The notes beneath the pieces are model-generated. The model was not told where the DNA came from, did no database searches, and saw only the letters and a list, made by a program, of their open reading frames with translations. Below are positions 3,982 to 41,371 of a stretch of DNA of 42,880 nucleotides, piece after piece. This DNA comes from a virus, in IMG/VR virus record IMGVR_UViG_3300048635_000074, positions 1 through 42,880 of that record; one strand, 5' to 3'. The translations under genes and the position numbers were made by a program. Position 1 is the stretch's first letter. Each line of letters begins with the position of its first letter.

Positions 3982-5079
3982 TTATGTTTTCGGCATTTCA
4001 TACACCACCTCTACGGCTTCGCTACTCTCATCTTCTCTCTTTTTTCTCACAACTGAAGCTATCCTTTTCACTTTCAGCTCATACTCATCATCTGTATATA
4101 CCGTCCTATCCTCTACCATACGCTTCGGGATTGTGATGGTGAAATTTTTCTCATCTATCCTATTTTTGATTATCGATAGCAACCTCGCATCTTCTCTATA
4201 TATGAAGTTTCCAGTTTGTGGGTCTTTTTTTGGTCTCTGAGGCGTTGCCATTATCTTCTCTTTTGAGAGAAACATTACATAATCAGCCATATATTGGAGA
4301 GCGTTACCGTTTTTTAGGTATAGCCCTCCCTCTTTTTCTGTGGTTTGGGAAACTTGAGCTATTAGGTAGATATTTATTTCCAATTGAGAGGCTAGTTTAC
4401 TTAGCTCTTTTGAGATATATTTCCAACTATCCACCTCTTTTGATGTGTGTATCCCTTTCACTTCTATGTTCATTATAGAATCTATCGCTATATGTCTTAC
4501 ACCCATTGCAGAGAGTAACTTTATCTCTATCTTAATCTCGTCTAAGCTCCTATCTCCTAAGTAGATTTTAATATTCTTACTATTCATAATCGCTCTATAC
4601 TTTAAAAGATTATCCCTCGCTTTCATTTTTCCCATCTCAAAATTGAAAAAAGCGACCTTGTTTTTTCTACTCAGAAAAGAAATAAGCCGCATAAAGAAAT
4701 TTGTTTTCCCAGCCCCTGAAACCCCAGCTAAAATAATCAGATTGGAGTGCCCACCTAAACCGTATCTCCTATCTATCACACGCCCCTTTTCGTCTGTGAT
4801 TTCCTGCTCCAAATACGCATCTAATAAGGGGATGCCAGTATAGACTTTTGGAACTTCAGGCTCGTTTTCCAACTGTTCAAGAAAATCATTAAAATCTATA
4901 GATTTTGCCCTTCTAGTCGATGAATCTATCATATCTAGAAGTTTAGCTCTCAGCTCGAGGTATTCCTTTTCTATTTTTCTCGCTTTTTCAAAATTCTCCT
5001 CACCCTCTAAGGTCGTTATCTCTTTTTTTAGCTTATTTGTAGTCTCTATCAGCTCACTCATCACTGTATTACTTCTCAT
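3982..5079 (-). CDS. Replicative helicase, RecA/DnaB-fold ATPase
   Basis: The 365-residue protein has a DnaB-type RecA-fold ATPase core. A Walker A motif lies at about 119-126 (GVSGAGKTN) and a Walker B-like strand at about 195-202 (RHIAIDSI). A glutamine-rich later motif (IYLIAQVSQ) matches the switch strand of DnaB-like ATPases, and there is a basic C-terminus. Residues about 10-55 form a charged coiled coil resembling a UVR motif in place of the usual DnaB N-terminal domain, which is unusual. It is likely the phage helicase for replication. The start at 5079 has a GGAGG site 6 nt upstream and overlaps the previous gene by 11 bp, so the two are translationally coupled. Confidence 0.8.
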   Translation of the reverse strand: MRSNTVMSELIETTNKLKKEITTLEGEENFEKARKIEKEYLELRAKLLDMIDSSTRRAKSIDFNDFLEQLENEPEVPKVYTGIPLLDAYLEQEITDEKGRVIDRRYGLGGHSNLIILAGVSGAGKTNFFMRLISFLSRKNKVAFFNFEMGKMKARDNLLKYRAIMNSKNIKIYLGDRSLDEIKIEIKLLSAMGVRHIAIDSIMNIEVKGIHTSKEVDSWKYISKELSKLASQLEINIYLIAQVSQTTEKEGGLYLKNGNALQYMADYVMFLSKEKIMATPQRPKKDPQTGNFIYREDARLLSIIKNRIDEKNFTITIPKRMVEDRTVYTDDEYELKVKRIASVVRKKREDESSEAVEVVYEMPKT

Positions 5080-5695
5080 TCCATACCTCCATTACTTTAA
5101 TTTGTATTAATTTTCTTAAATAATACTCCAATGTCTCAAAATCCCCATAATATGGAACAGTCAAAATATCTAAAACTCTATCTTGTTGATGAGGTGTAAG
5201 CTTTAGCCCCCAGTTTTCAATCAAATCTAAAACTACTGTAGATTTTAACCCCTTTTTAAGAATCTTGTTAATCGCCTCCACTATAGCCACTCTCTCAGCT
5301 GTAGAAAACCAATGTATAGATAGAGGCTCGGAATGCCCAATGAATAGGTATCCAGCTATTACAATATTCTCTATAGCCTCAATGGACGGTTTCAATCTGT
5401 GGGGATTTTTGCGAAAGTCATTAGTTGATATTTTCTTAATTTTTCTATAGATATTCACCTCTCTGAGCGTCTCTCCTACCAAAGGGAAAACACCTAAATC
5501 TACACCATACTCAAACGGTATCAGGGGTAAAGTATATGGTGCATCTTCTAGTCTAGATGCTATTACCTTAGCCAGAGGTTGGTCAAAATAATCGAATAGC
5601 GTCCAGTCAAGGGTGTTGACACCTTTCACCTCATCTAAATTCCAAATATAGGTCTCCAATAGCGAAGCTGAAACTGCGTAGTTTTCCCACAGCAT
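5069..5695 (-). CDS. Hypothetical protein coupled to helicase, possible loader or partner
   Basis: No family is recognised for this 208-residue protein. It is rich in aromatic residues in the first half and helical in the second (LKLTPHQQDRVLDILTVPYYG near residue 165). It overlaps the helicase gene by 11 bp. Such tight coupling often joins proteins of one complex, so a helicase-loading or N-terminal-domain substitute role is a reasonable inference, not evidence. Upstream lies the fourth structured leader RNA (5.79-5.94 kb) with a broken small ORF between, so expression of the replication genes may depend on that RNA. Confidence 0.65.
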   Translation of the reverse strand: MLWENYAVSASLLETYIWNLDEVKGVNTLDWTLFDYFDQPLAKVIASRLEDAPYTLPLIPFEYGVDLGVFPLVGETLREVNIYRKIKKISTNDFRKNPHRLKPSIEAIENIVIAGYLFIGHSEPLSIHWFSTAERVAIVEAINKILKKGLKSTVVLDLIENWGLKLTPHQQDRVLDILTVPYYGDFETLEYYLRKLIQIKVMEVWNEK

Positions 5696-5698
5696 TAA

Positions 5699-5786
5699 AT
5701 ACTCCTTAATTCTTCTACTAAGGCTTTAACGCCATGTCTTTTCTCAAAATCTCTTTACCATTGAGACTAATCATTTCTCTTTGCAT
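5699..5786 (-). pseudogene. Short broken ORF after leader RNA L4
   Basis: From an ATG at 5786 a 22-codon ORF begins MQREMISLNGKEIL and stops at 5718. A second frame running through the same stretch is open to a TAA near 5700 and ends with a protein-like tail (KRHGVKALVEELRSI). A single frame change at the AGAAAAG stretch would join the two. In the other three leader copies a full antirepressor gene starts at this position, so this may be a decayed remnant. A small leader peptide is the alternative. No known domain is long enough to identify. Confidence 0.4.
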
Positions 5787-5792
5787 AATCAC

Positions 5793-5942
5793 ACTTGACA
5801 GCTTGAAATTTGATTTTCTTTAAAGTGTGAGTGAGTCGTGAAGATGTCAAGCTTTACGGACTCTAAAACACTTAGAAAGGTAGCAGTCCGAGGGTGCTTG
5901 ACAAACCCAAAGCTACCTTACTAAATGCTCTAAAACTCAATT
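5793..5942 (-). ncRNA. Structured leader RNA L4 (double-pseudoknot family)
   Basis: The RNA follows a -10 box at 5949-5954. Helices on the minus strand are: basal stem 5935-5921/5875-5861 (15 bp with several G-U pairs); U-U mismatch; stem 5919-5912/5884-5877 (AAGGTAGC/GCTACCTT, 8 bp); hairpin GGGT/ACCC at 5908-5905/5895-5892; loop pairing GTCAAGC 5902-5896 with GCTTGAC 5852-5846; and CGGACT 5890-5885 with AGTCCG 5862-5857. Competing strands GTCAAG (5799-5794) and TCAAGC (5806-5801) lie just before the first ATG. The layout equals the leaders at 26.8, 27.8 and 30.6 kb, with the AGGU/ACCU hairpin changed to GGGU/ACCC, a compensatory change. The downstream ORF here is broken. Confidence 0.7.
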
Positions 5943-6012: not shown

Positions 6013-7119
6013 TTAACTACCTCTTAAAAACTCCTCTGTTTTGTCATAAAAGTTCAAATCGTCATCTGAGAGAAGGTAATCCATCCCATCTAATATAGTG
6101 AGTCTGCAATCCCAAAATCTTCTAATATCTACATCTGAATACCCACCCCTACGAAGTAGCCTTACTACTCCACCGTTCACATCGGATAGATTTACCTCTA
6201 TTTTAGTCGTATTTCCATTTTGTGGCGTTGATGCTGTATTGGTATGGGTCGGCATCTGGTTTGCGTTTCTCGTGGACGCTGGGGGGCTTTGGGGGGCTTC
6301 TTTCCTCTTTGATGTATCCATTCTCCTTAAATCCTTATCTGTCTTAGAAGACTTACTAAGCTCTACAGACTTATCTCTTTGCTGTTTAGGAGGTGAGACC
6401 TCCTCTCTTTGACTCTCTAATCTTCTCTCAAGTTCCGTAAGCAAAAAGAAATTCAATCTCTTAGCGTAATTTCTCTCTTCAGCAATATAACACGCGTAAG
6501 CGTTAGCCAACTCTTCTATATTTAGGTTGTCTTCTAGCTTTTGAAGCTCTTCAAAGTATTTTACAGTCTCCTCAGTCTGATTTACCTTTGCTTTGTATCT
6601 TAATAGCCTCTTCTCTTCAAGACCTTTGAGTATCAGACTGCGTAGATGCTGAAACTTCGATTTTTCTTTTTTATTTATTTTTTCTATCTTAGATGTAGTC
6701 TTAGATGTAGTCTTAGTAATAGTTTCGGGAATTTCCCTAAACTGTGATTGTGAATTTCCCAAATCTGACTGTTGGGTTTCGCCAACACTACTTTTCTTAG
6801 AAATACCCTCAAGTGCCTCTTTGTATGCAATCCAATCTATGGTATACCAAGTTTTCGCTGGAATACCTTTTCTCTCAATGATGATAAAATCAAGCTTTTT
6901 GATTGTTTTTTTTGCACTTCTAAGCTCATCTGTGGTTAATTGGGTCTCCTCTTTAATCTCGCTGTCTGTCTTGTAGAATGAGTCTTTGATGCTAAACCAA
7001 TACATCAACTGGCTAAGTAGAACTGCACCTGTGAGGCTTCCTGTTATTTTTCTATAAACTGGATAGTATGCAATCGGTCGCTGATTCAATTCTCTTAATA
7101 TGTCTGCACTAAAACTCAT
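6013..7119 (-). CDS. Replication initiator, winged-helix (lambda O-like role)
   Basis: The 368-residue protein starts with a winged helix domain at about residues 20-115, typical of phage replication proteins (LSQLMYWF, then FYKTDSEIKEETQLTTDELR, then an I-ERKG-PAKTWY wing). A Lys-rich segment follows, then a helical middle, then a low-complexity Pro/Ser/Thr linker (about 245-300) and a small C-terminal domain (VVRLLRRGGYSDVDIRRFW) that may contact the helicase or loader. Its start overlaps the stop of the Rha gene (ATGA). In lambda the origin lies inside the O gene. Here the 12-bp tandem repeat at 6688-6711 is the only obvious candidate, and it is weak. Confidence 0.75.
   Translation of the reverse strand: MSFSADILRELNQRPIAYYPVYRKITGSLTGAVLLSQLMYWFSIKDSFYKTDSEIKEETQLTTDELRSAKKTIKKLDFIIIERKGIPAKTWYTIDWIAYKEALEGISKKSSVGETQQSDLGNSQSQFREIPETITKTTSKTTSKIEKINKKEKSKFQHLRSLILKGLEEKRLLRYKAKVNQTEETVKYFEELQKLEDNLNIEELANAYACYIAEERNYAKRLNFFLLTELERRLESQREEVSPPKQQRDKSVELSKSSKTDKDLRRMDTSKRKEAPQSPPASTRNANQMPTHTNTASTPQNGNTTKIEVNLSDVNGGVVRLLRRGGYSDVDIRRFWDCRLTILDGMDYLLSDDDLNFYDKTEEFLRGS
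6688..6711. repeat. 12-bp tandem repeat inside initiator gene
   Basis: CTTAGATGTAGT is repeated twice back to back, followed by CTTAG of a third unit. In the protein it encodes TTSK repeats. It may be only a coding repeat; an iteron role at an internal origin, as in lambda, is speculative. Confidence 0.5.
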
Positions 7120-7880
7120 TTTAGCTCCTTTGGTTTATCGATTAAAATAATATCTGCAAACTCTAAAAGCTTATCTTTTGCCTTTTCATAGATACTCTTA
7201 TAATGAGTGCCTTTTTTCATTTCTCTCTCTATTAGGTCGCTTACGATTTTCTCAGCTAAAAAGAGTTGATGGAGCTGGAACATATCTAAGGCATCTCTGA
7301 CTTTGTTGGTCTTGTCTTTAGCTTGGAGTAGCTTTAGAGCTTTATATGTGGCATTTGTGAAGTGCTTATAGTAGAACTTGGCATTTTTTGAACCTTGCGA
7401 GGTTGCATACTCTACAAACTCTTTTATCGTATCAGTCTCTAGTCTTCTAGCAATCTTACCCTGCTCTCTTAACTGTCTCCACTCCTCACTTTGACTATTG
7501 AGTAATTTTTGTTGCATCAACTCAAAAGCATCTATAAATAGCTGTCTAGTGATAAAGAGTCTCTTTTTAGCCTCTAAGTTTTTAGGTGTCGATATTTCCA
7601 TTAGTAGAGTAGTAAAGCCTCTTTGGGTGAGTAGGTATTTTGGGTATTTCCTCTTTTTTGAGTCTCTGTAAGAGGATAAAATTATATGATTTTTGATTGG
7701 ACGGAAATTCGGCTGATTGAGTTTATCACTAAGTTCTAAAATATCTTTACATTTTTCTAATATATGTTTATGTCTTATTCCAAATCTCTTAGCAAAAATA
7801 AGAGTATCAGTGATTGGAATCTGTTTACCTTGTAGCTTTTTAGTTGTAACTAAGGTTTCTTTTGGTATAATTGTATCCAT
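7116..7880 (-). CDS. rha: Rha-family phage regulatory protein
   Basis: The 254-residue protein has the Rha domain in its first ~115 residues: the segment FGIRHKHILEKCKDIL near 33-48, then NHIILSSYRDSKKRKYPKYL and LTQRGFTTLLM. Rha proteins are phage regulators that interfere with growth of hosts lacking IHF in P22-type phages and behave like antirepressors. The C-terminal half is helical and unrelated to the well-known ORF6N or KilAC tails. It is first in an operon with the initiator gene (4-bp overlap). A hairpin holds its ribosome-binding site and a TATAAT box lies 44 nt upstream of the start. Confidence 0.75.
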   Translation of the reverse strand: MDTIIPKETLVTTKKLQGKQIPITDTLIFAKRFGIRHKHILEKCKDILELSDKLNQPNFRPIKNHIILSSYRDSKKRKYPKYLLTQRGFTTLLMEISTPKNLEAKKRLFITRQLFIDAFELMQQKLLNSQSEEWRQLREQGKIARRLETDTIKEFVEYATSQGSKNAKFYYKHFTNATYKALKLLQAKDKTNKVRDALDMFQLHQLFLAEKIVSDLIEREMKKGTHYKSIYEKAKDKLLEFADIILIDKPKELK

Positions 7881-7929
7881 AGGGTATCTCCTTATAATTT
7901 ATTTTTTTTTTTCGATACCCTATATTATA
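7881..7929 (-). promoter_or_regulatory. Promoter and RBS hairpin of rha
   Basis: A TATAAT at 7924-7929 (minus) is followed by AGGGTATC (7921-7914), which pairs perfectly with GATACCCT (7888-7881), directly touching the ATG at 7880. The 25-nt loop is A-rich and carries the Shine-Dalgarno AAGGAG at its 3' edge. The predicted transcript start falls inside or next to the 5' arm, so the hairpin is partial or complete depending on the exact start. This could tune translation or protect the 5' end. Confidence 0.55.
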
Positions 7930-7972
7930 TCTAATTAGGGATTAATAATAGCTTTAACTGCTTAAATCTTCT

Positions 7973-8023
7973 CTATTCCAAACCTAAGCTGGGATAATCA
8001 TATAGTATGTAGCCCTTGTTCAT
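7973..8023 (-). CDS. Tiny ORF, 16 aa, after KilA-N gene
   Basis: An ATG at 8023 is preceded by a strong AGGAG site inside the end of the KilA-N gene and begins MNKGYILYDYPSLGLE before a TAG. The start lies 2 nt past the upstream stop. The strong ribosome site is the only support. It may be a real micropeptide, or the start of a gene truncated by the later insertion of the rha promoter region. Confidence 0.35.
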   Translation of the reverse strand: MNKGYILYDYPSLGLE

Positions 8024-8024
8024 T

Positions 8025-8798
8025 TTAACTCCTCTTGGATAATCTATTTTTTAGCTCTTCAAAGTCTGTGATATTTGCATACTTTATATAGCCGTGGATA
8101 TCCCTCTCTACCTCTTTTATCGCTTTTAACTCATCTTCACTCATATAGTCTCTTATTGATTTACCCTGCTCTATTTCGATATTATGCTCATCTTTGTATT
8201 GCTTTGCAGTTTTGCCAAGTGCTATTTGATTTGCCAAATCTACTATCAGCTTGTAAGCCCATTTTTTTGCATTTTCTGTTCTTTGGGCTGGTATCCAAAT
8301 ATCCCTAATTACATCTGTAAGGGGTCTAAATAAAAGCTTTGTATCTTCTCTCTCAATGTGTAGGATAGTAGATTGTGTGATTATATTTTTAATGAGCTGG
8401 TCGCATTTGACGGCAAACTCTGTGTCTAAAAATCTGAAAAAATCAATAGCTAAATCTTTGTATAGCCAAGTTCCATTCAGCCAAGCTCTATCTTTTGTGT
8501 AGCCTCTTCTGGTAAACTTCAGCTTTATGGTTTTTTGGTTAATATCATCTTTTTGGGTGACATTATTATTTATTAATCTATTTAATATCTCTATATATTC
8601 TTTTGTTTTTTTTGACTTAAGATAGCTTTGCAATAAGATAGTGGCTTTTCTGTCAGTTTCTGCATATAATCTAGCAACTTGAGTTGCGTTAAAATAAGCT
8701 TCATCTCCATTTGACGATAAAAGCCTCTTAATATCGATTAAAATCGTGCCATACTGTAGATTTGTTTGATAGTTGTTTGACTTTCTACCTATAAATAG
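8025..8798 (-). CDS. KilA-N domain protein with unresolved start (in-frame amber)
   Basis: The frame encodes about 257 residues and covers a full KilA-N DNA-binding domain in its first ~130 residues (NQT-like start NYQTNLQYGTI, DEAYFNATQVARLY, then GTWLYKDLAIDFFRFLDTEF). The C-terminal half is helical and unassigned. No ATG, GTG or TTG gives the full domain. Upstream in frame is ATG GAG GTT TTG TAG at 8813-8799, so an amber codon stands at the fifth position, with GGAGG overlapping that ATG. Either the gene is crippled, it uses a non-standard start such as CUA at 8798 (8 nt after GGAGG), or there is a base error. A long structured RNA lies directly upstream. Confidence 0.6.
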   Translation of the reverse strand, partial: LFIGRKSNNYQTNLQYGTILIDIKRLLSSNGDEAYFNATQVARLYAETDRKATILLQSYLKSKKTKEYIEILNRLINNNVTQKDDINQKTIKLKFTRRGYTKDRAWLNGTWLYKDLAIDFFRFLDTEFAVKCDQLIKNIITQSTILHIEREDTKLLFRPLTDVIRDIWIPAQRTENAKKWAYKLIVDLANQIALGKTAKQYKDEHNIEIEQGKSIRDYMSEDELKAIKEVERDIHGYIKYANITDFEELKNRLSKRS

Positions 8799-9852: not shown

Positions 9853-10035
9853 TCTTAATTGAAAGGAGTTTTTTTTGATTAGAGGGGCTAAGGCTTCGGT
9901 CTTGGCTCAAATATAGTCTGTTTTTCGGAGGGAGTACCGTTTCTGTCCTTCTCCTTTTGCACTCCCTCCTCAAAGCAGATTAAGGATACGGAAGTGATGC
10001 TTCTGTCTTCTTTATCTCCAACTGCTTAATTTTAT
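9853..10035 (+). ncRNA. Structured rightward leader RNA with UUCG hairpin
   Basis: Three stable hairpins follow the rightward promoter: 9885-9908 with an 8-10 bp stem closed by C(UUCG)G; 9914-9982 with an outer stem TAGTCTG/CAGATTA plus TTTT/AAAG and an inner 9-bp stem GGAGGGAGT/ACTCCCTCC; and 9988-10006 with ACGGAAG/CTTCTGT around a 5-nt loop. No U-run follows, so it is not a simple terminator. A 13-codon ORF from a TTG near 9876 with a good AAAGGAG site overlaps the first hairpin (MIRGAKASVLAQI), so a leader-peptide mechanism is possible. The 9.70-10.11 kb interval holds nothing else that looks coding. Confidence 0.6.
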
Positions 10036-25984: not shown

Positions 25985-26740
25985 TTAAAATCTCTCTATC
26001 ACTTTTAGTAGCTCTTTATAGGTAGTTATAGTTTTGAGCTTTATCATCTTTTCCAATAGGTCGCAGATATCCCCTCTCTTTTCCTGAAGCTTGGTATCCT
26101 TATTATTCCAACCCAGCTTTAGTTTGTCATTTACCTTTCGATTAATTAGAGTTGAGACCTCAATATATCTATCTGGTTTATCTGGCAATCCCTCGAGCTT
26201 ATCTATTGCCTTGTTTAGCCTCTTAAAAGCCTCTCCACCAAAATCTCTAAGGTTTAGTATATTGTCATCAATAAAAGTCTTATAAACTCTAGCTTCAACT
26301 GCTTTATCCACATTTCCAGCTATCTTGAGCAATATCTCCAATCTAGCCCAAGTCCCACCATATTTACCTCTTTTTGACTTTATCAGGTGTGGGAACATTT
26401 TCATAAGCTTTTCATATTTAACCTTCCCGTCTTTGTCTAAATTATCATAAATAATGGAATAGTCTGCTATAGTCTTTACATTATTTAATTCTGCCGAATC
26501 GGCAGTTTTAGAAAACTGCTCCTCTTCCATATCCAAGATAGCTACTTCAAAAATATATTTCCATAAATCAACACTTCTAAGGGCTTGCTCTATTTTATAA
26601 TTACCCTTGCCACCTTTTAGCTTGTCTGATACATTACACATATCTATCACATCTTGAACTTTTCCCATTCTGTCTTTGTGTCCTATATTCAACACACCAT
26701 AGTCTCCAATCTTGATTTGCATCATCTGATTAGTTTTCAT
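25985..26740 (-). CDS. KilA-N domain antirepressor-type protein
   Basis: The 251-residue protein carries a KilA-N-like DNA-binding domain in a central position (RGKYGGTWARLEILLKIAGN, then EARVYKTFIDDNIL). The usual early part is present as GNYKIEQALRSVDLWKYIFE; the C-terminal third is helical and charged. KilA-N proteins act as phage regulators, commonly as antirepressors. It is transcribed against the late genes from its own promoter at 26.89 kb, through a structured leader (L1). The start has AAAGG at a suitable distance. Confidence 0.7.
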   Translation of the reverse strand: MKTNQMMQIKIGDYGVLNIGHKDRMGKVQDVIDMCNVSDKLKGGKGNYKIEQALRSVDLWKYIFEVAILDMEEEQFSKTADSAELNNVKTIADYSIIYDNLDKDGKVKYEKLMKMFPHLIKSKRGKYGGTWARLEILLKIAGNVDKAVEARVYKTFIDDNILNLRDFGGEAFKRLNKAIDKLEGLPDKPDRYIEVSTLINRKVNDKLKLGWNNKDTKLQEKRGDICDLLEKMIKLKTITTYKELLKVIERF

Positions 26741-26762: not shown

Positions 26763-26882
26763 TAGGCAAAAAAGTAAGTGGGAGTATTTGAAGTGCCTAT
26801 TTTCAAATATCGATATCCACTTAGAGGAGCTGGGATATTTGAGGTATAGGCAAACCTTTGGATACCAGCTCCACTAAATAGA
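26763..26882 (-). ncRNA. Structured leader RNA L1 (double-pseudoknot family)
   Basis: The RNA begins at the predicted start of its promoter. Minus-strand pairing: ATCTATTTAG 26883-26874 with CTAAGTGGAT 26824-26815 (10 bp); U-U mismatch; GGAGCTGG 26872-26865 with CCAGCTCC 26833-26826; hairpin AGGT/ACCT 26857-26854/26845-26842; its loop GCCTAT 26851-26846 pairs with ATAGGC 26800-26795; CAAATATC 26841-26834 pairs with GATATTTG 26811-26804. A third strand GCCTA (26767-26763), near the start codon, can compete for ATAGGC. TAAGTGG (26823-26817) can also pair with CCACTTA downstream, so at least two folds are possible. The same layout with different sequences occurs in L2, L3 and L4. Confidence 0.75.
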
Positions 26883-26888
26883 TAATAT

Positions 26889-26911
26889 ATTATATCATAC
26901 TAAGCTTAAAA
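26889..26911 (-). promoter_or_regulatory. Promoter of leader L1 / KilA-N gene
   Basis: TTTTAAG is followed after 10 nt by TATAAT (26894-26889). The predicted start at about 26882 coincides with the first base of the basal stem of the leader RNA. Confidence 0.65.
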
Positions 26912-26959
26912 TTAGACAATATGGGGGATTAAGAAAAGACATCCCTCTTTAGGTAGGAT

Positions 26960-27682
26960 TTAAATCTTCATTAGTAGCTTAAAAGTCTCTCTACCCTTTG
27001 GAGTAATTAGAGTTTGAACTCCAACTTTACTATCTCTCTTCCACTCTTTTATCTCAAAAAGGTCTGGGGTGTGGTCTGCATACGGTCGGAGCTGATTTTT
27101 GCTATCTCTATATACATACTTATTTTCGATAAGCCAATTAATAAACTCTTTTTGCTTAACCTTAAGCTCTTTTGCTGTGTCTCTAAAATTGGTTAGCAAG
27201 TTCCTATCTACCAAGCCGTCGAAATAATCAGCTTTTGGCTTCATCTTTTTGTTTTCTAACTCCAACTGTTCATTTTTCTCTATCTCTTCTACTAAAGCAA
27301 TCAAAGCCTCTTTGTAGGTTTGTGGTAGTTTTGGGAGATTAGCCTTGTATTGTTTTTCCACCTTAATAAAATATCTCCTAACCTCATCGCCTTTTGTATT
27401 ATTTTCCAACATCGCTATCATCTTTGCCGTATCAAGTGTCAATATGTAGTCTACTTGCTTTCCTTGTAAACTTAATCCTTTCTTAACTATCATAGGATTA
27501 TGAAATCTATCAATAACTACTCTTACATAATCAATACCCTCAATAAACCTTTCTAGTCTCTTCTTAATCCAATCAGAATATTGTTGTTTACTCTCTAAAA
27601 TTCTGTGTAACTCTCTTGCATTTACAGAGTTTACCTCATCAGCACCGATAACCGTTTGATTGATTTGAATTAAATCTCTCAT
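26960..27682 (-). CDS. Antirepressor, AntA + KilAC (ANT) domains
   Basis: I start the protein at ATG 27682 (AAAGG site upstream), not at an upstream ATG inside the leader RNA; this gives 240 residues. The N-terminal half is an AntA-type domain (SVNARELHRILESKQQYSDW, then IKKRLERFIEGIDYV, then YILTLDTAKMIAML and NTKGDEVRRYFI). The C-terminal half is a KilAC/ANT domain (DRNLLTNFRDTAKELKVKQK, then FINWLIENKYVYR). Such proteins inactivate repressors or regulate phage genes. It is a minus-strand insert in the late region, with leader L2 and its own promoter. A weak hairpin with GGGAT/ATCCC lies downstream at about 26915-26945. Confidence 0.85.
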   Translation of the reverse strand: MRDLIQINQTVIGADEVNSVNARELHRILESKQQYSDWIKKRLERFIEGIDYVRVVIDRFHNPMIVKKGLSLQGKQVDYILTLDTAKMIAMLENNTKGDEVRRYFIKVEKQYKANLPKLPQTYKEALIALVEEIEKNEQLELENKKMKPKADYFDGLVDRNLLTNFRDTAKELKVKQKEFINWLIENKYVYRDSKNQLRPYADHTPDLFEIKEWKRDSKVGVQTLITPKGRETFKLLMKI

Positions 27683-27704
27683 AAAAAAACCTTTAAGTAA
27701 AATT

Positions 27705-27833
27705 TGGACATAGAAAAAAAAGAGGGTAAGTAGTGAAGTGTCCAGCCTCAATAGCTTACGGTATCCCCTTAGAAGAGAGCAGAGCTATTAGGTGCTGGAC
27801 TTACCTTTGGATACTGCTCTCTACTAAAGAGAT
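27705..27833 (-). ncRNA. Structured leader RNA L2 (double-pseudoknot family)
   Basis: Minus-strand pairing: ATCTCTTTAG 27833-27824 with CTAAGGGGAT 27772-27763 (10 bp with G-U pairs); U-U mismatch; AGAGAGCAG 27822-27814 with CTGCTCTCT 27782-27774; hairpin AGGT/ACCT 27806-27803/27793-27790; loop GTCCAGC 27800-27794 with GCTGGAC 27746-27740; AATAGCT 27789-27783 with AGCTATT 27756-27750. A competing strand TGTCCA (27710-27705) lies before the ribosome-binding site. Every helix differs in sequence from L1 yet is perfectly paired, while the UATCCAAAGGT linker is kept. Confidence 0.78.
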
Positions 27834-27838
27834 ATGTT

Positions 27839-27883
27839 ATTATAGCATACAAACCTTAAGATAGTTTGATTTTTCGATATAAT
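27839..27883. promoter_or_regulatory. Divergent promoters sharing one CTTAAG site
   Basis: The palindrome CTTAAG at 27855-27860 serves both directions. On the minus strand it is followed after 10 nt by TATAAT (27844-27839), which starts leader L2. On the plus strand TTAAG (27856-27860) is followed after 17 nt by TATAAT (27878-27883), with a T-rich -16 region, and reads into the Cys-rich gene pair. Confidence 0.65.
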
Positions 27884-27915
27884 ATAGCAAGTATTGATAA
27901 AACAAAGGGGGTGTA

Positions 27916-28071
27916 ATGGCAAATCCAAAAAGTTCAAACGCTCTAAGTGAAGCGATTCACAAAATCGTAAAAAAAGAGAGTCGCAAAGAGGGCAAAAAAG
28001 AGACGAATGTAATCAAAGTCGGTGAGATACAACCAGAGAAAACCGTAATATTGGATAACCTCACAAAATGA
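27916..28071 (+). CDS. Small basic protein, 51 aa
   Basis: The ATG follows GGGGGTG. The product is Lys/Glu-rich (ALSEAIHKIVKKESRKEGKK) with a short beta-like end (NVIKVGEIQPEKTVILDNL). The stop overlaps the next start (ATGA), so it is coupled to the Cys-rich gene. No family recognised; it could be a chaperone or assembly partner for the following virion-type protein. Confidence 0.6.
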   Translation: MANPKSSNALSEAIHKIVKKESRKEGKKETNVIKVGEIQPEKTVILDNLTK

Positions 28072-28895
28072 GATGCACCACTACCAGTAGTAGAGGTTGC
28101 GTAGATACAGAAAAAAACGGCTGTGTAACAATCAATCCAAAAGATAGAGCCGTATCGACTGGACTATTTCTACCTCTCTATTCTATAGAGTTTGACAGTA
28201 GCATCAATCCACCATTTAGAGAAAATGTAAAGTGGCTAGAGGTATTTGTAGAAGATATTCCAAAAGAGGCAATTTCTATCGACTGTATAGCTAGATACAC
28301 CTATAGACCGTGTGGGCTGGATGTCTGCAACTCAGACCATTGCCCATATATAGATGAGCTTCACACCGACCCTTATCAATGCGTCCCTGCTGGTATGAAA
28401 TTTGTAGAACCAAGGGCAAATCTACTGATTGGTAGCACCTGCTACGATGAGCATCGATACTATGTATCTGGGCGTTTTCTAGGTTTTCCTTTTGTGTATA
28501 GGTCCCACTACTTTATGTCGCGTCCTATCTTCACAGATGAAAATGGGGACACAGCGTGTGTTTGCCAACCTGACCCATTTTCTACATTTGAGTTTGATAT
28601 TGGTGCTGATTTGGGCTATAGTGAGGAGTGGACGGCTAGGTATGTGAATGGGAAAAACATAGGAAAAGATATACCTGAATACCTGAAGCCACACCTAGAG
28701 AATGGTTTTTCACACTTTGGTTATTACTGTGCTTATTGGTCGAAATATAACACGCCCCCAGACCAAGAGGACGGCTCTATATCGTGTAGTGGACTTTGTG
28801 GGGGTGCAAAAGAGTTTTTTCGAGGAGCTATCCCTGATATATCAGGTAAAACACAGATAGTTTTGTCTCCATTGTGGGGTTTGAGATTGAGATAA
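28068..28895 (+). CDS. Cys-rich protein, probable virion component
   Basis: The 275-residue protein is rich in Cys (about 17) and aromatic residues, with clusters such as RPCGLDVCNSDHCPYIDE and SISCSGLCGGAKEFFRG. The Cys spacing suggests metal binding or disulfides, the latter fitting an extracellular virion protein. No known family is recognised. It is on the plus strand with the late genes but driven by its own promoter, and lies between two antirepressor units. Confidence 0.55.
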   Translation: MRCTTTSSRGCVDTEKNGCVTINPKDRAVSTGLFLPLYSIEFDSSINPPFRENVKWLEVFVEDIPKEAISIDCIARYTYRPCGLDVCNSDHCPYIDELHTDPYQCVPAGMKFVEPRANLLIGSTCYDEHRYYVSGRFLGFPFVYRSHYFMSRPIFTDENGDTACVCQPDPFSTFEFDIGADLGYSEEWTARYVNGKNIGKDIPEYLKPHLENGFSHFGYYCAYWSKYNTPPDQEDGSISCSGLCGGAKEFFRGAIPDISGKTQIVLSPLWGLRLR

Positions 28896-28956
28896 AAAAA
28901 CATACCAGATGCATCTGATAGTAAAAATCACATACAGAAAAAGGAGTAAAAAAAAA

Positions 28957-29793
28957 ATGAGTGTAGAGCTAATAAATGGTGATTGTGTGGGCATTATTGG
29001 CGATATGATTAGTAACGGTGAAACCGTAGATGCTATAGTTACCGACCCACCATATCAATACTTAAACCATAAAATGGATAAAGCTTTTAGAGAGGAGTTG
29101 TTTTTTCAGAGAGTTTACGACTTGTTAAAAGAAAACGGCTTCTTAGTGTTCTTTGGTAGAGGTTCAAGTTTCTATCGTTGGAATGTAATATGTGAAAAGA
29201 TTGGCTTCAAGTTCAAAGAGGAGCTAATTTGGGATAAAAAATCTATTTCAAATCCAGCTGGAGCAATTGGTAGATGCCATGAAACTATTGCAGTGCATGG
29301 AAAAGGCAATGCAAAACTTAAAAGAGTTTTTGTAGATTATTTTGAGCATAGAGAGGCAAACGAGCATTACGAAAACTACAAATATGACCTTAATAGAATA
29401 AGAACTCTATTTCGTAATAATAACTTTGATGAAATAAAAGAGAGATTAGAAAAGAAAACACCAGAAAAGAAGGTGGGGCATCGTGTTACACTTGCTAAAA
29501 AATGGGGCTGGGATAGAGGAGCTGAGACACTTAAGAGGTTAGATAGAGGATTGCTTTTAAGAAGTATTGTGAGAGAAAATAGAGAGCATTACAAGACAAA
29601 ACACCCCACACAAAAGCCATACAAACTAATAGAAAAGCTGATTAGCCTCACAACAAACGAGGGCGACACAGTATTAGACCCATTTATGGGGAGTGGCTCA
29701 ACTGGAATAGCCTGCCGCAACCTAAAGAGGAACTTTATAGGTATAGATATAGATGATAATTATGTCAAAGTAGCAAAAGAGAGGATAAAATAG
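28957..29793 (+). CDS. DNA adenine-N6 methyltransferase (DPPY, beta-type order)
   Basis: I start at ATG 28957, with AAGGAG 10 nt upstream; an earlier start at 28909 has none. The 278-residue enzyme has DPPY at about residues 30-33 (DAIVTDPPYQYL), VFFGRGSSFYRW, a variable target-recognition middle, KHPTQKPYKLIEKLI, and the SAM-binding DPFMGSGSTGIA near residue 247. The order (catalytic motif first) is the beta group that includes many phage orphan enzymes. It adds methyl groups to adenine in a specific site, probably to protect phage DNA or change regulation. No restriction partner is visible. It is the second methyltransferase in this genome. Confidence 0.9.
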   Translation: MSVELINGDCVGIIGDMISNGETVDAIVTDPPYQYLNHKMDKAFREELFFQRVYDLLKENGFLVFFGRGSSFYRWNVICEKIGFKFKEELIWDKKSISNPAGAIGRCHETIAVHGKGNAKLKRVFVDYFEHREANEHYENYKYDLNRIRTLFRNNNFDEIKERLEKKTPEKKVGHRVTLAKKWGWDRGAETLKRLDRGLLLRSIVRENREHYKTKHPTQKPYKLIEKLISLTTNEGDTVLDPFMGSGSTGIACRNLKRNFIGIDIDDNYVKVAKERIK

Positions 29794-29813
29794 CCCTCTC
29801 ATTAACTATTTGA

Positions 29814-30518
29814 CTAAAACAAGCTCAAAATAAAATCTCTACCAGCCTGAGACCAATGCCTATTATAGATAGTCTTGCCATTTTCTAAGACCTCTTGTTT
29901 TATTACTGTGTAGCCAAGATTTGCATAATCACTATACAATACCCAAGTTCCATTTTGTTTATATTGTATTTTCATTTCTGCCAACTTTTTATTGAGCTGG
30001 ATAGCACTCTTAAACCCTAACTCTTTTGCTATTTCAGTAGTAGTGTAGGTTTTATTCACAAACATTAATCTATTATTGATTGTCTTAACCTCATCTCGTT
30101 GTTTTTCAGCTTCGAGTCTCTTATCTCTCTCATCTTTGAGTTTTGTAACGACTTCCAATAATAGGTCTGGATTATCTAATAGTTCATCTTTTGCATACAT
30201 ACCGTGCTTTCTAATAGATGGCAAAACCTCACTTGTTACCCACCTTTTAAACTTTTTGGCTTCAGGCTTGCGACTCATAAATATAATTTGATAGACACCA
30301 CTTTCATTTATCAGCTTCATATCTCTCATCTGTCCACCTGAGTTAAGTTTAACTGAAGTCAGGTCTTCGACATCAACTCTTTTGAGAGTCTCTGTGATAT
30401 TTTTTAAACCCAAAATATCAACAACATCTTTAGCTACGAACCAAGGCTCTCTTGTCTTTTCATTGACAACGACTCTAACCTCTCCAAAATCACTATTTCT
30501 AAACACTTCTAAGTTCAT
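29814..30518 (-). CDS. Antirepressor, BRO-N + KilAC domains
   Basis: The 234-residue protein has a BRO-N domain (FGEVRVVVNEKTREPWFVAK, then DVVDILGLKNITETLKRVD, then LINESGVYQIIFMSRKPEAK and WVTSEVLPSIRKHGMY), a charged coiled linker and a C-terminal KilAC domain (TTTEIAKELGFKSAIQLNKK). BRO/KilAC proteins bind DNA and act as antirepressors in many phages. It sits between the methyltransferase and late gene block 2, on the minus strand, with leader L3 and its own promoter. Confidence 0.88.
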   Translation of the reverse strand: MNLEVFRNSDFGEVRVVVNEKTREPWFVAKDVVDILGLKNITETLKRVDVEDLTSVKLNSGGQMRDMKLINESGVYQIIFMSRKPEAKKFKRWVTSEVLPSIRKHGMYAKDELLDNPDLLLEVVTKLKDERDKRLEAEKQRDEVKTINNRLMFVNKTYTTTEIAKELGFKSAIQLNKKLAEMKIQYKQNGTWVLYSDYANLGYTVIKQEVLENGKTIYNRHWSQAGRDFILSLF

Positions 30519-30534
30519 AATAAAAAATCTTTCA

Positions 30535-30671
30535 CAGGAATATAGTAGTAAAGCAGTTACGAAATTCCTGAAGCTTCGCGACTTGTTACCTCTACTCTAA
30601 AGAGCTGTATTGAGCAGTTGCAGGTGCTTCAGGAAACCTTGAGGACTCAATACAACTCTATACAATAGAGA
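30535..30671 (-). ncRNA. Structured leader RNA L3 (double-pseudoknot family)
   Basis: A TGTTATAAT -10 (30683-30678) predicts a start near 30671. Minus-strand pairing: 30670-30656 with 30604-30590 (13 of 15 bp); mismatch or U-G; TGTATTGAG 30654-30646 with CTCAATACA 30614-30606; hairpin AGGT/ACCT 30639-30636/30625-30622; loop TTCCTGAAGC 30635-30626 with GCTTCAGGAA 30574-30565 (10 bp); GCAACT 30621-30616 with AGTCGC 30583-30578 (5 of 6). A competing strand TTCCTG (30540-30535) lies near the start codon. It has the same topology as L1 and L2. Confidence 0.73.
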
Positions 30672-30718
30672 TAGAGTATTATAACATATAACCTCAAAAA
30701 TGGCAAGAGGCAAAATAG

Positions 30719-30949
30719 CTACTTTTCACTCCACTTTTTAAGCTGATACACAGCCAACTCTATACCAAGATTAATAATAAACTCCGATGTATCCTTTGCA
30801 AACTCCCTTACTCTCTTTTTGACTAGCTCCCTTTTAGTTGCACCATCCAGTGACGAGTCCATATAGACAGCTACAATTTCTTTAATTGCATCGAATAGGT
30901 CTCCACCTATTAGCCACTTTGCAAACTTGCTAAATATATATTTTTTCAC
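30719..30949 (-). CDS. Small helical protein, 76 aa
   Basis: The protein starts MKKYIFSKFAKWLIGGDLFD and continues with helices rich in charged residues and an ending NLGIELAVYQLKKWSE. Small proteins of this make-up occur near lysis or holin genes in phages, but I cannot assign a family. It has its own promoter (TGCTATAAT at 30987-30982) and a GGGAGG site just before the start. Confidence 0.5.
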   Translation of the reverse strand: MKKYIFSKFAKWLIGGDLFDAIKEIVAVYMDSSLDGATKRELVKKRVREFAKDTSEFIINLGIELAVYQLKKWSEK

Positions 30950-30981: not shown

Positions 30982-31000
30982 ATTATAGCATATATCCCCT
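30982..31000 (-). promoter_or_regulatory. Promoter of the 76-aa gene
   Basis: On the minus strand an extended -10 (TATGCTATAAT) with TATAAT at 30987-30982 precedes the start by about 33 nt. The terminator-like palindrome at 31046-31061 separates it from the ParB-like gene. Confidence 0.55.
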
Positions 31001-39427: not shown

Positions 39428-40435
39428 TTAAAAATCATCAAAGTCAATACTATTCTTTGCGTAGCTGTTTACATTCGATTCAAAGAAGTTAGCTCTGCTA
39501 TTGTTGATATTCCTATTCTTTTCTACCAACTCTTGAAGATAGGTATTTGGACTCTTTGGAAAAATCTCATCAAGACCAATTATCTTAAGCCTCTCATTTG
39601 CGTAGTTATAGATAGTATTTCTAATTACGTCCTCAGTAATCCCCATAATAGGGAATCTTTGAGCCAAGTAGAGACCATAACTAAGCTCAATATCCACAGC
39701 CTCGCTCATCATCTCATATACTCTATCTATTGTTTTTATTGAGATGCTATTCTCTTTTTTAATTGTTTTGAAGATATTAGCAAAAAGTGGTAAGTGGGTA
39801 TTTAGCTCATCTCTGGCTATCAGCTGTATCATATCCCTTGCCCCTTGCACCTTATCCCCTATGGTATAGATAAAGCCAAAACCTAAAAGGAAATAGATAC
39901 CCTCAAGATTTACACTTGCCAAAGCAGATAAAAGAAGTTCGTCAGAGGTGCTACCCTCTATATACCTTGCAAACTGTCCTGAAATCCTCTCATTTTTCTC
40001 TCTCAATTTGTCATCTGTCTTGTATAGGTCGAAAACTTCACTAGAAACCCCACTTGCATCCAATAGGACAGCGTAAGAGTTTGAGTGATTTACCTCTTGA
40101 AAGCTTTGTAAGCTTAAGACCCCCCTTAAGATATTGTTTGTAGTATGCCTTGCAAAATCTTGAAGATAGAGGGTTTGAACGGAATCGTTAAAGCTCAATT
40201 GAGCAAAAGTAAGCTTGTAGATATTCTGTTCATTTTCACTCAGATTTTCAAACTCTTTTTTTTCATTTGCTGTATTTACCTCTGAGGGGAACCAGCTATT
40301 AGCATTCATTAAGTCATAGAGGTTAACCGACCACTTATATCTTGGTCGGTTAAAGTCAATAAATCCTGTGGGGTTAACCCCCAGAATGCTTTCATTCATA
40401 CTGTCGCAACCGTTGACATTGAAATACTTACTCAT
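39428..40435 (-). CDS. nrdB: Ribonucleotide reductase class I beta subunit
   Basis: The 335-residue protein is the radical-generating subunit that, with NrdA, reduces ribonucleotides. Visible residues: Asp84 (SFNDSVQ), Glu114 and His117 with the radical Tyr121 (QEVNHSNSY), Glu178 (NLEGIYF), Glu210 and His214 (RDELNTH). In most NrdB proteins the last pair is ExxH; here it is ExxxH, an odd spacing of an iron-ligand pair. The C-terminal tail ends DFDDF, the usual docking peptide for NrdA. No NrdA is encoded in the window, so it probably pairs with the host alpha subunit. Its start overlaps the previous stop (ATGA). Confidence 0.9.
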   Translation of the reverse strand: MSKYFNVNGCDSMNESILGVNPTGFIDFNRPRYKWSVNLYDLMNANSWFPSEVNTANEKKEFENLSENEQNIYKLTFAQLSFNDSVQTLYLQDFARHTTNNILRGVLSLQSFQEVNHSNSYAVLLDASGVSSEVFDLYKTDDKLREKNERISGQFARYIEGSTSDELLLSALASVNLEGIYFLLGFGFIYTIGDKVQGARDMIQLIARDELNTHLPLFANIFKTIKKENSISIKTIDRVYEMMSEAVDIELSYGLYLAQRFPIMGITEDVIRNTIYNYANERLKIIGLDEIFPKSPNTYLQELVEKNRNINNSRANFFESNVNSYAKNSIDFDDF

Positions 40436-40740
40436 TTTTCAACTCCCCTTAATATTTTTTTAATTAGTCTTCTATTGTCCCACGCTAAAATCCTATCAAC
40501 AAACCCAAGCTTTGGTTCAAACTCTTCAGGGAAAACCAGCTCGTAATAATCATAAAAACTCTCAGTCGATACAAAAGTCCGAATAAGGGTATCGCTTTTT
40601 GCTTCAAACCTGCTCTCTACAAAGCCCAATAGCTCCATAGTCTCCACAGTCTCATCTCCAAGGCTACAAATCAGAGACTCGTAGCTACCTCTTGGATTCT
40701 CCTTTAGCCACTTTAGATTTTCCAGAAACTCATTATCCAT
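40432..40740 (-). CDS. Hypothetical protein between thyX and nrdB, 102 aa
   Basis: No family recognised. The protein is acidic with helices at the start (NEFLENLKWLKENPRGSYES) and end (DRILAWDNRRLIKKILRG). It overlaps nrdB (4 bp) and thyX (8 bp), so all three are translated as one unit. A role in nucleotide metabolism or as a winged-helix-like adaptor is possible; nothing in the sequence proves it. Confidence 0.6.
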   Translation of the reverse strand: MDNEFLENLKWLKENPRGSYESLICSLGDETVETMELLGFVESRFEAKSDTLIRTFVSTESFYDYYELVFPEEFEPKLGFVDRILAWDNRRLIKKILRGVEK

Positions 40741-41371
40741 TTTTTACACCCCTCATAACCTCTTGAAGCTCCACGGTCATAGAATCATGAATATTTTGCA
40801 TCAATTCTCTATACGCAAAATGAGCCGTTTTCGCAGTCCTCAGATTCCACATATTTTGTAAACTTCTCATATTGATAGTCACTCGTAGGTCGCAAAGATA
40901 AGCCTCTGGAATAGCCATTTTTGCCTTGTCATTTGACACCCCATTTTCTACCAATTTTCGGACATTCTCTAAAGCTCTAACCGTTACCATATCTATCTCA
41001 ATATCACCTAGAAGATAGACATACTTCGAGGCTCTACCAAAATCAAATTGGTGCAATATGAAGCTATCCTTGCCTTTCAACTCTGATAGCGTCCACCGAG
41101 TGCTTTTTACAGTCATAGATTGCATTCTGTGTCTTGCCCACTCTTGGAGTATGAAGCGTGGCATATTCTCTATATAAAAGTGCATCACTATATGCTCAAG
41201 TGTAGAGCCGTGTTTCATCTGATTTCCAACCCTTTTAACAAGGTCCAACTCTTTTTGTTTATCCCTTTTTTTGTCTTGACTCTGATATGCAATTCTGATA
41301 CTATCAGAACACGCCTCAAGTGGTGAATGCCAAACCAGCGTAGACTGGCTGTAGTGGCTATACTTACTCAT
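40733..41371 (-). CDS. thyX: Flavin-dependent thymidylate synthase
   Basis: The 212-residue enzyme makes dTMP from dUMP with FAD and methylenetetrahydrofolate. The ThyX motif RHR-x7-S is at residues 80-90 (WARHRMQSMTVKSTRW), with the variant TVK in place of the common NE, and a HGSTLEH segment precedes it (54-60). RNLRTA-type conserved residues follow late (QNMWNLRTAKTAHFAYRELM). Length is normal. With NrdB it raises deoxynucleotide supply for phage replication. It overlaps the small upstream gene by 8 bp. Confidence 0.92.
   Translation of the reverse strand: MSKYSHYSQSTLVWHSPLEACSDSIRIAYQSQDKKRDKQKELDLVKRVGNQMKHGSTLEHIVMHFYIENMPRFILQEWARHRMQSMTVKSTRWTLSELKGKDSFILHQFDFGRASKYVYLLGDIEIDMVTVRALENVRKLVENGVSNDKAKMAIPEAYLCDLRVTINMRSLQNMWNLRTAKTAHFAYRELMQNIHDSMTVELQEVMRGVKNG

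What the first reader, a model, noticed from the sequence alone, without database searches (positions are those of the whole stretch)
26763..30671. A family of four double-pseudoknot leader RNAs, three of them in front of different antirepressor genes
Leaders at 26.76-26.88, 27.70-27.83, 30.53-30.67 and 5.79-5.94 kb (all minus strand) share one layout: basal stem of 10-15 bp starting at the predicted RNA 5' end, 1x1 mismatch, 8-9 bp stem, AGGU/ACCU hairpin (GGGU/ACCC in one copy), and two loop strands that pair with sequence after the stem. Helix sequences differ in every copy while pairing is kept, which is covariation. The downstream proteins belong to unrelated families (KilA-N, AntA-KilAC, BRO-KilAC), so the RNA module is shared rather than the coding gene. 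I know of no named RNA class with this layout, but could not search.
Basis: partly seen in the sequence, partly recalled or inferred. Interest (0 to 1): 0.92.

Follow-up and report, generated by a model that had tools for sequence, protein, structure and literature searches.

The report
Four C4-like antisense RNA leaders
A bacterial virus carries four differently keyed copies of a small RNA lock, each just in front of genes it probably controls; the lock has the layout of the C4 antisense RNA that helps keep phage P1 dormant, but in a diverged form that the RNA-family library does not recognise.

Summary
All four leaders lie at the stated places. Their stems covary (16 of 23 pairs change on both sides). 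Their two loop strands match two downstream strands with different sequences in every copy (11 of 13 pairs change on both sides).

The interpretation needs changing. The layout is that of the P1 C4 antisense RNA, which sits in the antirepressor operon and whose hairpin loop (b') and adjacent strand (a') match b2 and a2 just downstream. Order and topology agree. Differences: no P2 hairpin, no Rfam C4 match at E up to 10, target not on the ribosome-binding site, RNA start predicted at the stem itself. A cis double pseudoknot cannot coexist with the intact stem in at least three copies, because the 2-5 nt linkers are too short. Antisense pairing in trans, or stem opening, fits better.

Two further shared elements, less strongly supported: b2 sits in the loop of a target hairpin, and a second L1-like sequence near the start codon also matches b2.

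Copy D precedes replication genes, not an antirepressor. No homologue was found outside this phage. Verdict: a new variant of a known kind.

The parts
26815..26883 (-). Leader A, C4-like module: basal stem 26883-26874/26824-26815, U.U mismatch, inner stem 26872-26865/26833-26826, AGGU hairpin 26857-26842 with L1 26853-26846, then L2 26841-26834
26794..26811 (-). Leader A targets: a2 26811-26803 (matches L2), b2 26800-26794 (matches L1)
26763..26768 (-). Leader A L1' (UGCCUA), second sequence complementary to b2, 22 nt before the ATG
26889..26899 (-). Leader A extended -10 box TATGATATAAT
25985..26740 (-). Gene behind leader A, 251 aa, weak KilA-N similarity
27763..27833 (-). Leader B, C4-like module: hairpin 27806-27790, L1 27802-27794, L2 27789-27783
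27740..27756 (-). Leader B targets: a2 27756-27749, b2 27746-27740
27705..27710 (-). Leader B L1' (UGUCCA)
27839..27849 (-). Leader B extended -10 box TATGCTATAAT
26960..27682 (-). Gene behind leader B: AntA + KilAC (ANT) antirepressor, 240 aa
30590..30670 (-). Leader C, C4-like module: hairpin 30639-30622, L1 30635-30626, L2 30621-30615
30565..30584 (-). Leader C targets: a2 30584-30578 (one mismatch with L2), b2 30574-30565 (10 bp with L1)
30535..30541 (-). Leader C L1' (AUUCCUG)
30678..30688 (-). Leader C extended -10 box TATGTTATAAT
29814..30518 (-). Gene behind leader C: Bro-N + KilAC antirepressor, 234 aa
5865..5931 (-). Leader D, C4-like module: GGGU hairpin 5908-5892, L1 5904-5896, L2 5891-5885
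5845..5862 (-). Leader D targets: a2 5862-5857, b2 5852-5845
5794..5800 (-). Leader D L1' (UGUCAAG), 7 nt before an ATG
3982..5786 (-). Operon behind leader D: 22-aa ORF (5786-5718), 208-aa protein of no known family (5695-5069), DnaB-type helicase (5079-3982)

Best explanation
Each leader is a self-contained C4-like antisense control cassette. A promoter starts an RNA at the foot of a long stem whose far end exposes two antisense segments: a hairpin loop (L1, like P1 b') and the adjacent strand (L2, like P1 a'). Just downstream in the same transcript lie the targets, in the order a2 (for L2) then b2 (for L1). The module, freed by termination, processing or decay of part of the transcripts, binds the leaders of other transcripts in trans: loop L1 first touches loop b2, then L2 takes a2. 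This lowers expression of the gene behind it, as C4 does for ant in a P1 lysogen. Each copy has its own key, so the phage has four separate switches: three on antirepressor-type genes and one on replication genes. Shown: structure, covariation, position, target order. Inferred: action in trans, release of the module, repression (I put repression rather than activation at about 0.65 if the rest is right). Suggested only: b2 pairs with L1' to free the start region and the antisense prevents this, as in repZ control of IncI-complex plasmids.
For: Same topology and same target order as P1 C4 in its annotated record and Rfam alignment. Stem and loop/target covariation. Own-target duplexes -17.1 to -21.3 kcal/mol, all foreign combinations -9.0 or weaker. 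Stem and cis pairing are mutually exclusive in A, C and D, as the P1 geometry (3-nt linker) also implies. Antirepressor genes behind B and C. Target hairpin with b2 in the loop in all four (combined p about 0.004) and L1' near the start codon (combined p about 1.6e-4). C4 represses ant and is processed from a longer transcript (PMC5320573, PMC8198154).
Against: No expression data; release of a short RNA is assumed and there is no strong shared terminator or processing signal. b2 does not cover the ribosome-binding site, so the means of repression is unproven; in the folding computation antisense binding by itself hardly changes access to the start region in A and C. A blind energy scan finds other sites in the window of similar energy for C and D. 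No homologue outside this phage.
Confidence: 0.68

Rival explanations
1. Cis-acting switch: no antisense RNA is released. The stem forms first; later the leader refolds so that L1 and L2 pair with b2 and a2 of the same molecule, the basal stem opens, and its 3' strand is free to pair downstream, giving a terminator-like hairpin in A (and weakly in B).
For: Everything lies in one leader on one strand. Opening only the basal stem leaves about 14 nt to span the 8-9 bp inner stem, which is feasible. Basal 3' strand matches a segment before a U-run in A (p 0.004).
Against: The closed stem is very stable (modules -27.7 to -34.4 kcal/mol) and the downstream pairing is significant only in A (combined p about 0.04). 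P1 C4 has the same geometry and acts in trans.
Confidence: 0.18
2. Trans-acting activation, as for IsrK of prophage Gifsy-1: the a2/b2 region pairs with the L1' and Shine-Dalgarno region and hides it; the short RNA takes a2/b2 away and switches the antirepressor on.
For: Minimum-energy folds of leaders A and B pair a2/b2 with L1' and the Shine-Dalgarno region. IsrK is a same-promoter small RNA that activates translation of the read-through transcript for an antirepressor (PMC4825925).
Against: In C and D the fold is the target hairpin instead; blocking a2/b2 does not lower the computed cost of opening the start region (3.7 to 3.9, 3.5 to 4.8, 5.4 to 5.2, 6.4 to 7.6 kcal/mol). The extended a2-b2/start-region duplex is not clearly better than shuffles (p 0.05-0.36).
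Confidence: 0.1
3. A ligand-sensing riboswitch or other compact double-pseudoknot leader.
For: No Rfam match; a conserved UAUCCAA-AGGU patch in A and B.
Against: The patch is not kept in C and D, and the loop sequences change freely as long as pairing is kept; a binding pocket would keep sequence. The compact form with closed stem is excluded by geometry in A, C and D.
Confidence: 0.04

Closest known systems
C4 antisense RNA of phages P1 and P7 (Rfam RF01695; targets c4-a1b1, RF03163; clan CL00128)
   Same: Long interrupted stem, terminal hairpin with an antisense loop, adjacent antisense strand, two targets just downstream in the order a2 then b2, at the head of an antirepressor operon, variable loops in a constant frame (PMC5320573).
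   Different: No P2 (UUCG) hairpin; 4-bp AGGU hairpin; targets 2-4 nt apart instead of 22; b2 about 45-60 nt before the start codon rather than on an icd ribosome-binding site; RNA predicted to start at the stem, so no 5' leader for RNase P; no upstream a1/b1; no Rfam hit at E up to 10; copy D in front of replication genes.
IncI-complex plasmid RNAI (Inc RNA) with repZ activator pseudoknot
   Same: Antisense loop facing the loop of a target hairpin (kissing), and the same target loop able to pair with a sequence next to the start region.
   Different: There the antisense RNA is made from the opposite strand of the target; here it lies upstream on the same strand. Gene controlled is not a plasmid rep gene.
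IsrK of Salmonella prophage Gifsy-1
   Same: Small RNA and antirepressor mRNA from the same promoter, acting on each other by pairing (PMC4825925).
   Different: IsrK activates and has a terminator and a different structure; no comparison of sequence was made here.
CI RNA of satellite phage P4
   Same: Leader-derived antisense RNA with complementary sites in the same transcript, controlling replication genes (as described in PMC4825925); resembles copy D.
   Different: P4 has targets both upstream and downstream of CI and acts by transcription termination; not compared by sequence here.

Membership tests
C4 antisense RNA (RF01695) | Match to the Rfam covariance model | tested here: not met
   No match at gathering score in the window nor at E up to 10 around the leaders; P1 itself scores 68.8 bits. 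Reverse: model R1 gives P1 C4 only 4.1 bits.
C4 antisense RNA (RF01695) | Interrupted long stem closing on a hairpin with antisense loop plus an adjacent antisense strand | tested here: met
C4 antisense RNA (RF01695) | P2 hairpin (UUCG) between stem and P3 | tested here: not met
   A and B have unpaired UAUCCAA, C UCCUCA, D UUU at that place
C4 antisense RNA (RF01695) | Two targets downstream, a2 then b2 | tested here: met
C4 antisense RNA (RF01695) | b2 overlaps the ribosome-binding site of a small ORF ahead of ant | tested here: not met
   b2 ends about 45-60 nt before the ATG in all four
C4 antisense RNA (RF01695) | At the head of an antirepressor operon | tested here: inconclusive
   B and C yes; A weak KilA-N; D no, replication genes
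C4 antisense RNA (RF01695) | Second target pair a1/b1 upstream of the RNA | tested here: not met
   the predicted transcript starts at the stem in A, B and C
C4 antisense RNA (RF01695) | Short processed RNA acting in trans | not testable with these tools
   needs RNA data
RNAI/repZ system of IncI-complex plasmids | Target loop also pairs with a sequence next to the start region | tested here: inconclusive
   6, 6, 7, 7 complementary bases, other combinations at most 5; combined p about 1.6e-4; computed effect on start region in A, C, D, not in B
RNAI/repZ system of IncI-complex plasmids | Antisense RNA encoded on the opposite strand of the target hairpin | tested here: not met
   module and target are on the same strand
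P4 CI RNA; Gifsy-1 IsrK | Sequence or model relation | not tested
   compared only by description

The most novel reading that the evidence does not exclude
A C4-type antisense module and a repZ-type activator pseudoknot are combined in one portable cassette: the same target loop b2 is contested by the antisense loop L1 and by an L1 mimic (L1') near the start codon. One phage has spread the cassette into four mutually non-crossing keys on antirepressor and replication genes, probably outside the host range from which C4 RNAs are described.
Probability: 0.28. Interest if true: 0.75.

Novelty: new variant of a known kind. Interest (0 to 1): 0.58.

Why it matters
C4 RNAs were described from Proteobacteria and their phages (PMC2864571). 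A diverged form that Rfam does not see suggests that RNA control of antirepressors is wider than annotated and that it has to be sought by layout and complementarity rather than by sequence. Four copies with different keys in one genome are a natural swap experiment on antisense specificity, and show the RNA module moving independently of the gene it controls, from antirepressors to replication genes.

Tried and rejected
Homologues. Covariance model R1 on 397 Campylobacterota genomes: one weak hit, E 0.03, taken as chance. 30 Campylobacterota KilAC loci: none by model or descriptor. 79 new IMG/VR KilAC loci: descriptor hits weak and unconvincing, model run on 45 of them finds none. Phages NrS-4, SNW-1 and a Helicobacter prophage: nothing convincing. 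blastn of leaders B, C and D against phages: chance hits only. Terminase and helicase queries found no relatives in IMG/VR.

A fifth copy at 9916-9980 (+), E 0.009: rejected, no AGGU hairpin, loop/target pairing p 0.14. Leader peptides starting at TTG in A, B and D: rejected, absent in C and not aligned. A shared intrinsic terminator: supported in A only; the terminator scan lists none at the leaders. Extended pairing of a2-b2 with the start region: not better than shuffles.

Full report
WHAT IS THERE. The window is a 42,880-base virus record with terminase, portal, tail and replication genes. The host is unknown. The nearest terminase in the phage collection is that of a Sulfurimonas phage at 33%, and portal relatives at 35-39% occur in 4 of 397 Campylobacterota genomes, so a Campylobacterota host is plausible but not shown. 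Four minus-strand leaders, A (26.9 kb), B (27.8 kb), C (30.7 kb) and D (5.9 kb), share one layout: a long stem interrupted by a mismatch, a 4-bp AGGU/ACCU hairpin (D: GGGU/ACCC) with loop L1 of 8-10 nt, a strand L2 of 7-8 nt, the closing strands, and 2-6 nt further on two segments a2 and b2 that match L2 and L1.

IS IT MORE THAN CHANCE. A descriptor scan finds A, B and D as the three best places in the window (24.0, 23.4, 22.0), and no shuffled leader out of 3000 reached their totals. In shuffles of about 1 Mb of other DNA single scores of 24.4 and 22.4 do occur, so one copy alone would not be proof; several copies right behind promoters with shared layout are. On a structure-guided alignment 16 of 23 stem pairs have changes on both sides and 97.8% of cells pair. 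For L1:b2 and L2:a2 it is 11 of 13 pairs and 98.0%. No letter shuffle came near, and slid structures collapse. The alignments were padded by hand with N to fit the structure, so these counts lean towards it, and there are only four sequences.

WHAT IT IS. The annotated P1 genome and the Rfam alignment to it show the same topology for C4: basal stem, bulge, stem, hairpin P2, hairpin P3 whose loop holds b', single strand a', closing strands; then a2 three bases later, b2 after it, then icd and ant. C4 is an antisense RNA, processed from a longer transcript, that represses ant (PMC5320573, PMC8198154). The window leaders most likely work like C4. They are not members of RF01695 as curated: no match at E up to 10, no P2 hairpin, b2 not on a ribosome-binding site, no upstream a1/b1 targets.

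WHY NOT A PSEUDOKNOT AS DRAWN. L2 lies at the far end of a stem of 18-25 positions. a2 lies at its near end, 3 (A), 6 (B), 5 (C) and 2 (D) bases from it. In A-form geometry the ends are 40-57 A apart for 18-21 bp, while linkers of 3 to 5 nt span at most 26 to 39 A; B is borderline. P1 C4 has the same geometry (3 nt, about 17 bp). In cis the pairing requires the basal stem to open.

SPECIFICITY. Each antisense segment pairs with its own target at -17.1, -21.3, -20.3 and -20.3 kcal/mol and with the other three no better than -9.0. A blind energy scan of the whole window, ignoring structure, finds other sites of similar energy, notably for C and D. The case therefore rests on geometry and covariation, not on energy alone.

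FURTHER SHARED ELEMENTS. (1) In all four copies a2 can pair with the bases right after b2, which puts b2 in a hairpin loop; p 0.03, 0.09, 0.36, 0.01, combined by Fisher's method about 0.004. (2) Near the start codon each leader has an L1-like sequence, L1', complementary to b2 over 6, 6, 7 and 7 bases, against at most 5 for every non-matching combination; combined p about 1.6e-4. In a simple computation forming b2:L1' makes the start region easier to open in A, C and D (3.7 to 1.9, 5.4 to 3.9, 6.4 to 2.0 kcal/mol) but not in B, while antisense binding does not. This recalls repZ control by kissing antisense RNA and pseudoknot in IncI-complex plasmids (and its references). (3) Pairing of the basal 3' strand with a segment after the target hairpin, which would give a terminator-like structure, is supported only in A (p 0.004; combined about 0.04). 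I looked at several such features, so these p-values are optimistic.

CONTEXT. B and C precede antirepressors (AntA-KilAC and BRO-KilAC). A precedes a protein with weak KilA-N similarity. A, B and C are opposite-strand cassettes among tail genes. D lies between an O-like replication initiator gene and a DnaB-type helicase gene, so it probably guards replication, which recalls CI RNA of satellite phage P4 (as described in PMC4825925).

DIRECTION OF CONTROL. I favour repression because C4 represses and because the computation gives no release of the start region on antisense binding. IsrK of Gifsy-1 shows that a same-promoter small RNA can also activate an antirepressor, so activation stays open.

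DISTRIBUTION. No other copy was found in the collections searched (see tried and rejected).

SHOWN AND INFERRED. Shown by sequence: structure, covariation, order, position. Inferred: action in trans, release of the module, repression. Suggested: loop-loop contact and competition by L1'.

Noticed in passing
window 9870-10018 (+): Very stable structured leader (z -4.7) between divergent modules: a UUCG hairpin, then a long stem with a 25-nt loop, then another hairpin. Weak match to model R1 (E 0.009) but no AGGU hairpin and no significant loop/target pairing (p 0.14).
   Followed up: partly
window 30982-30992 (-): Fourth exact TATGNTATAAT box of the window, in front of a 76-aa ORF (30719-30949) without a C4-like leader; all four exact boxes lie in the opposite-strand cassette region.
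   Followed up: no
window 25985-26740 (-): Best PHROG hit of this protein is named amidase (phrog_6095), probably a carried-over misnomer; Pfam gives weak KilA-N and a Vibrio phage relative is called KilA.
   Followed up: partly
window 5718-5786 (-): 22-aa ORF directly behind leader D, followed by a well-spaced start for the 208-aa gene; could be a remnant of a lost antirepressor or a coupled leader ORF.
   Followed up: no
window 39428-41371 (-): Phage-borne ribonucleotide reductase beta subunit and thymidylate synthase genes.
   Followed up: no
window 7116-8633 (-): Rha-family and KilA-N regulatory genes in the early region: with B, C and A the phage has at least five antirepressor-like genes.
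   Followed up: no
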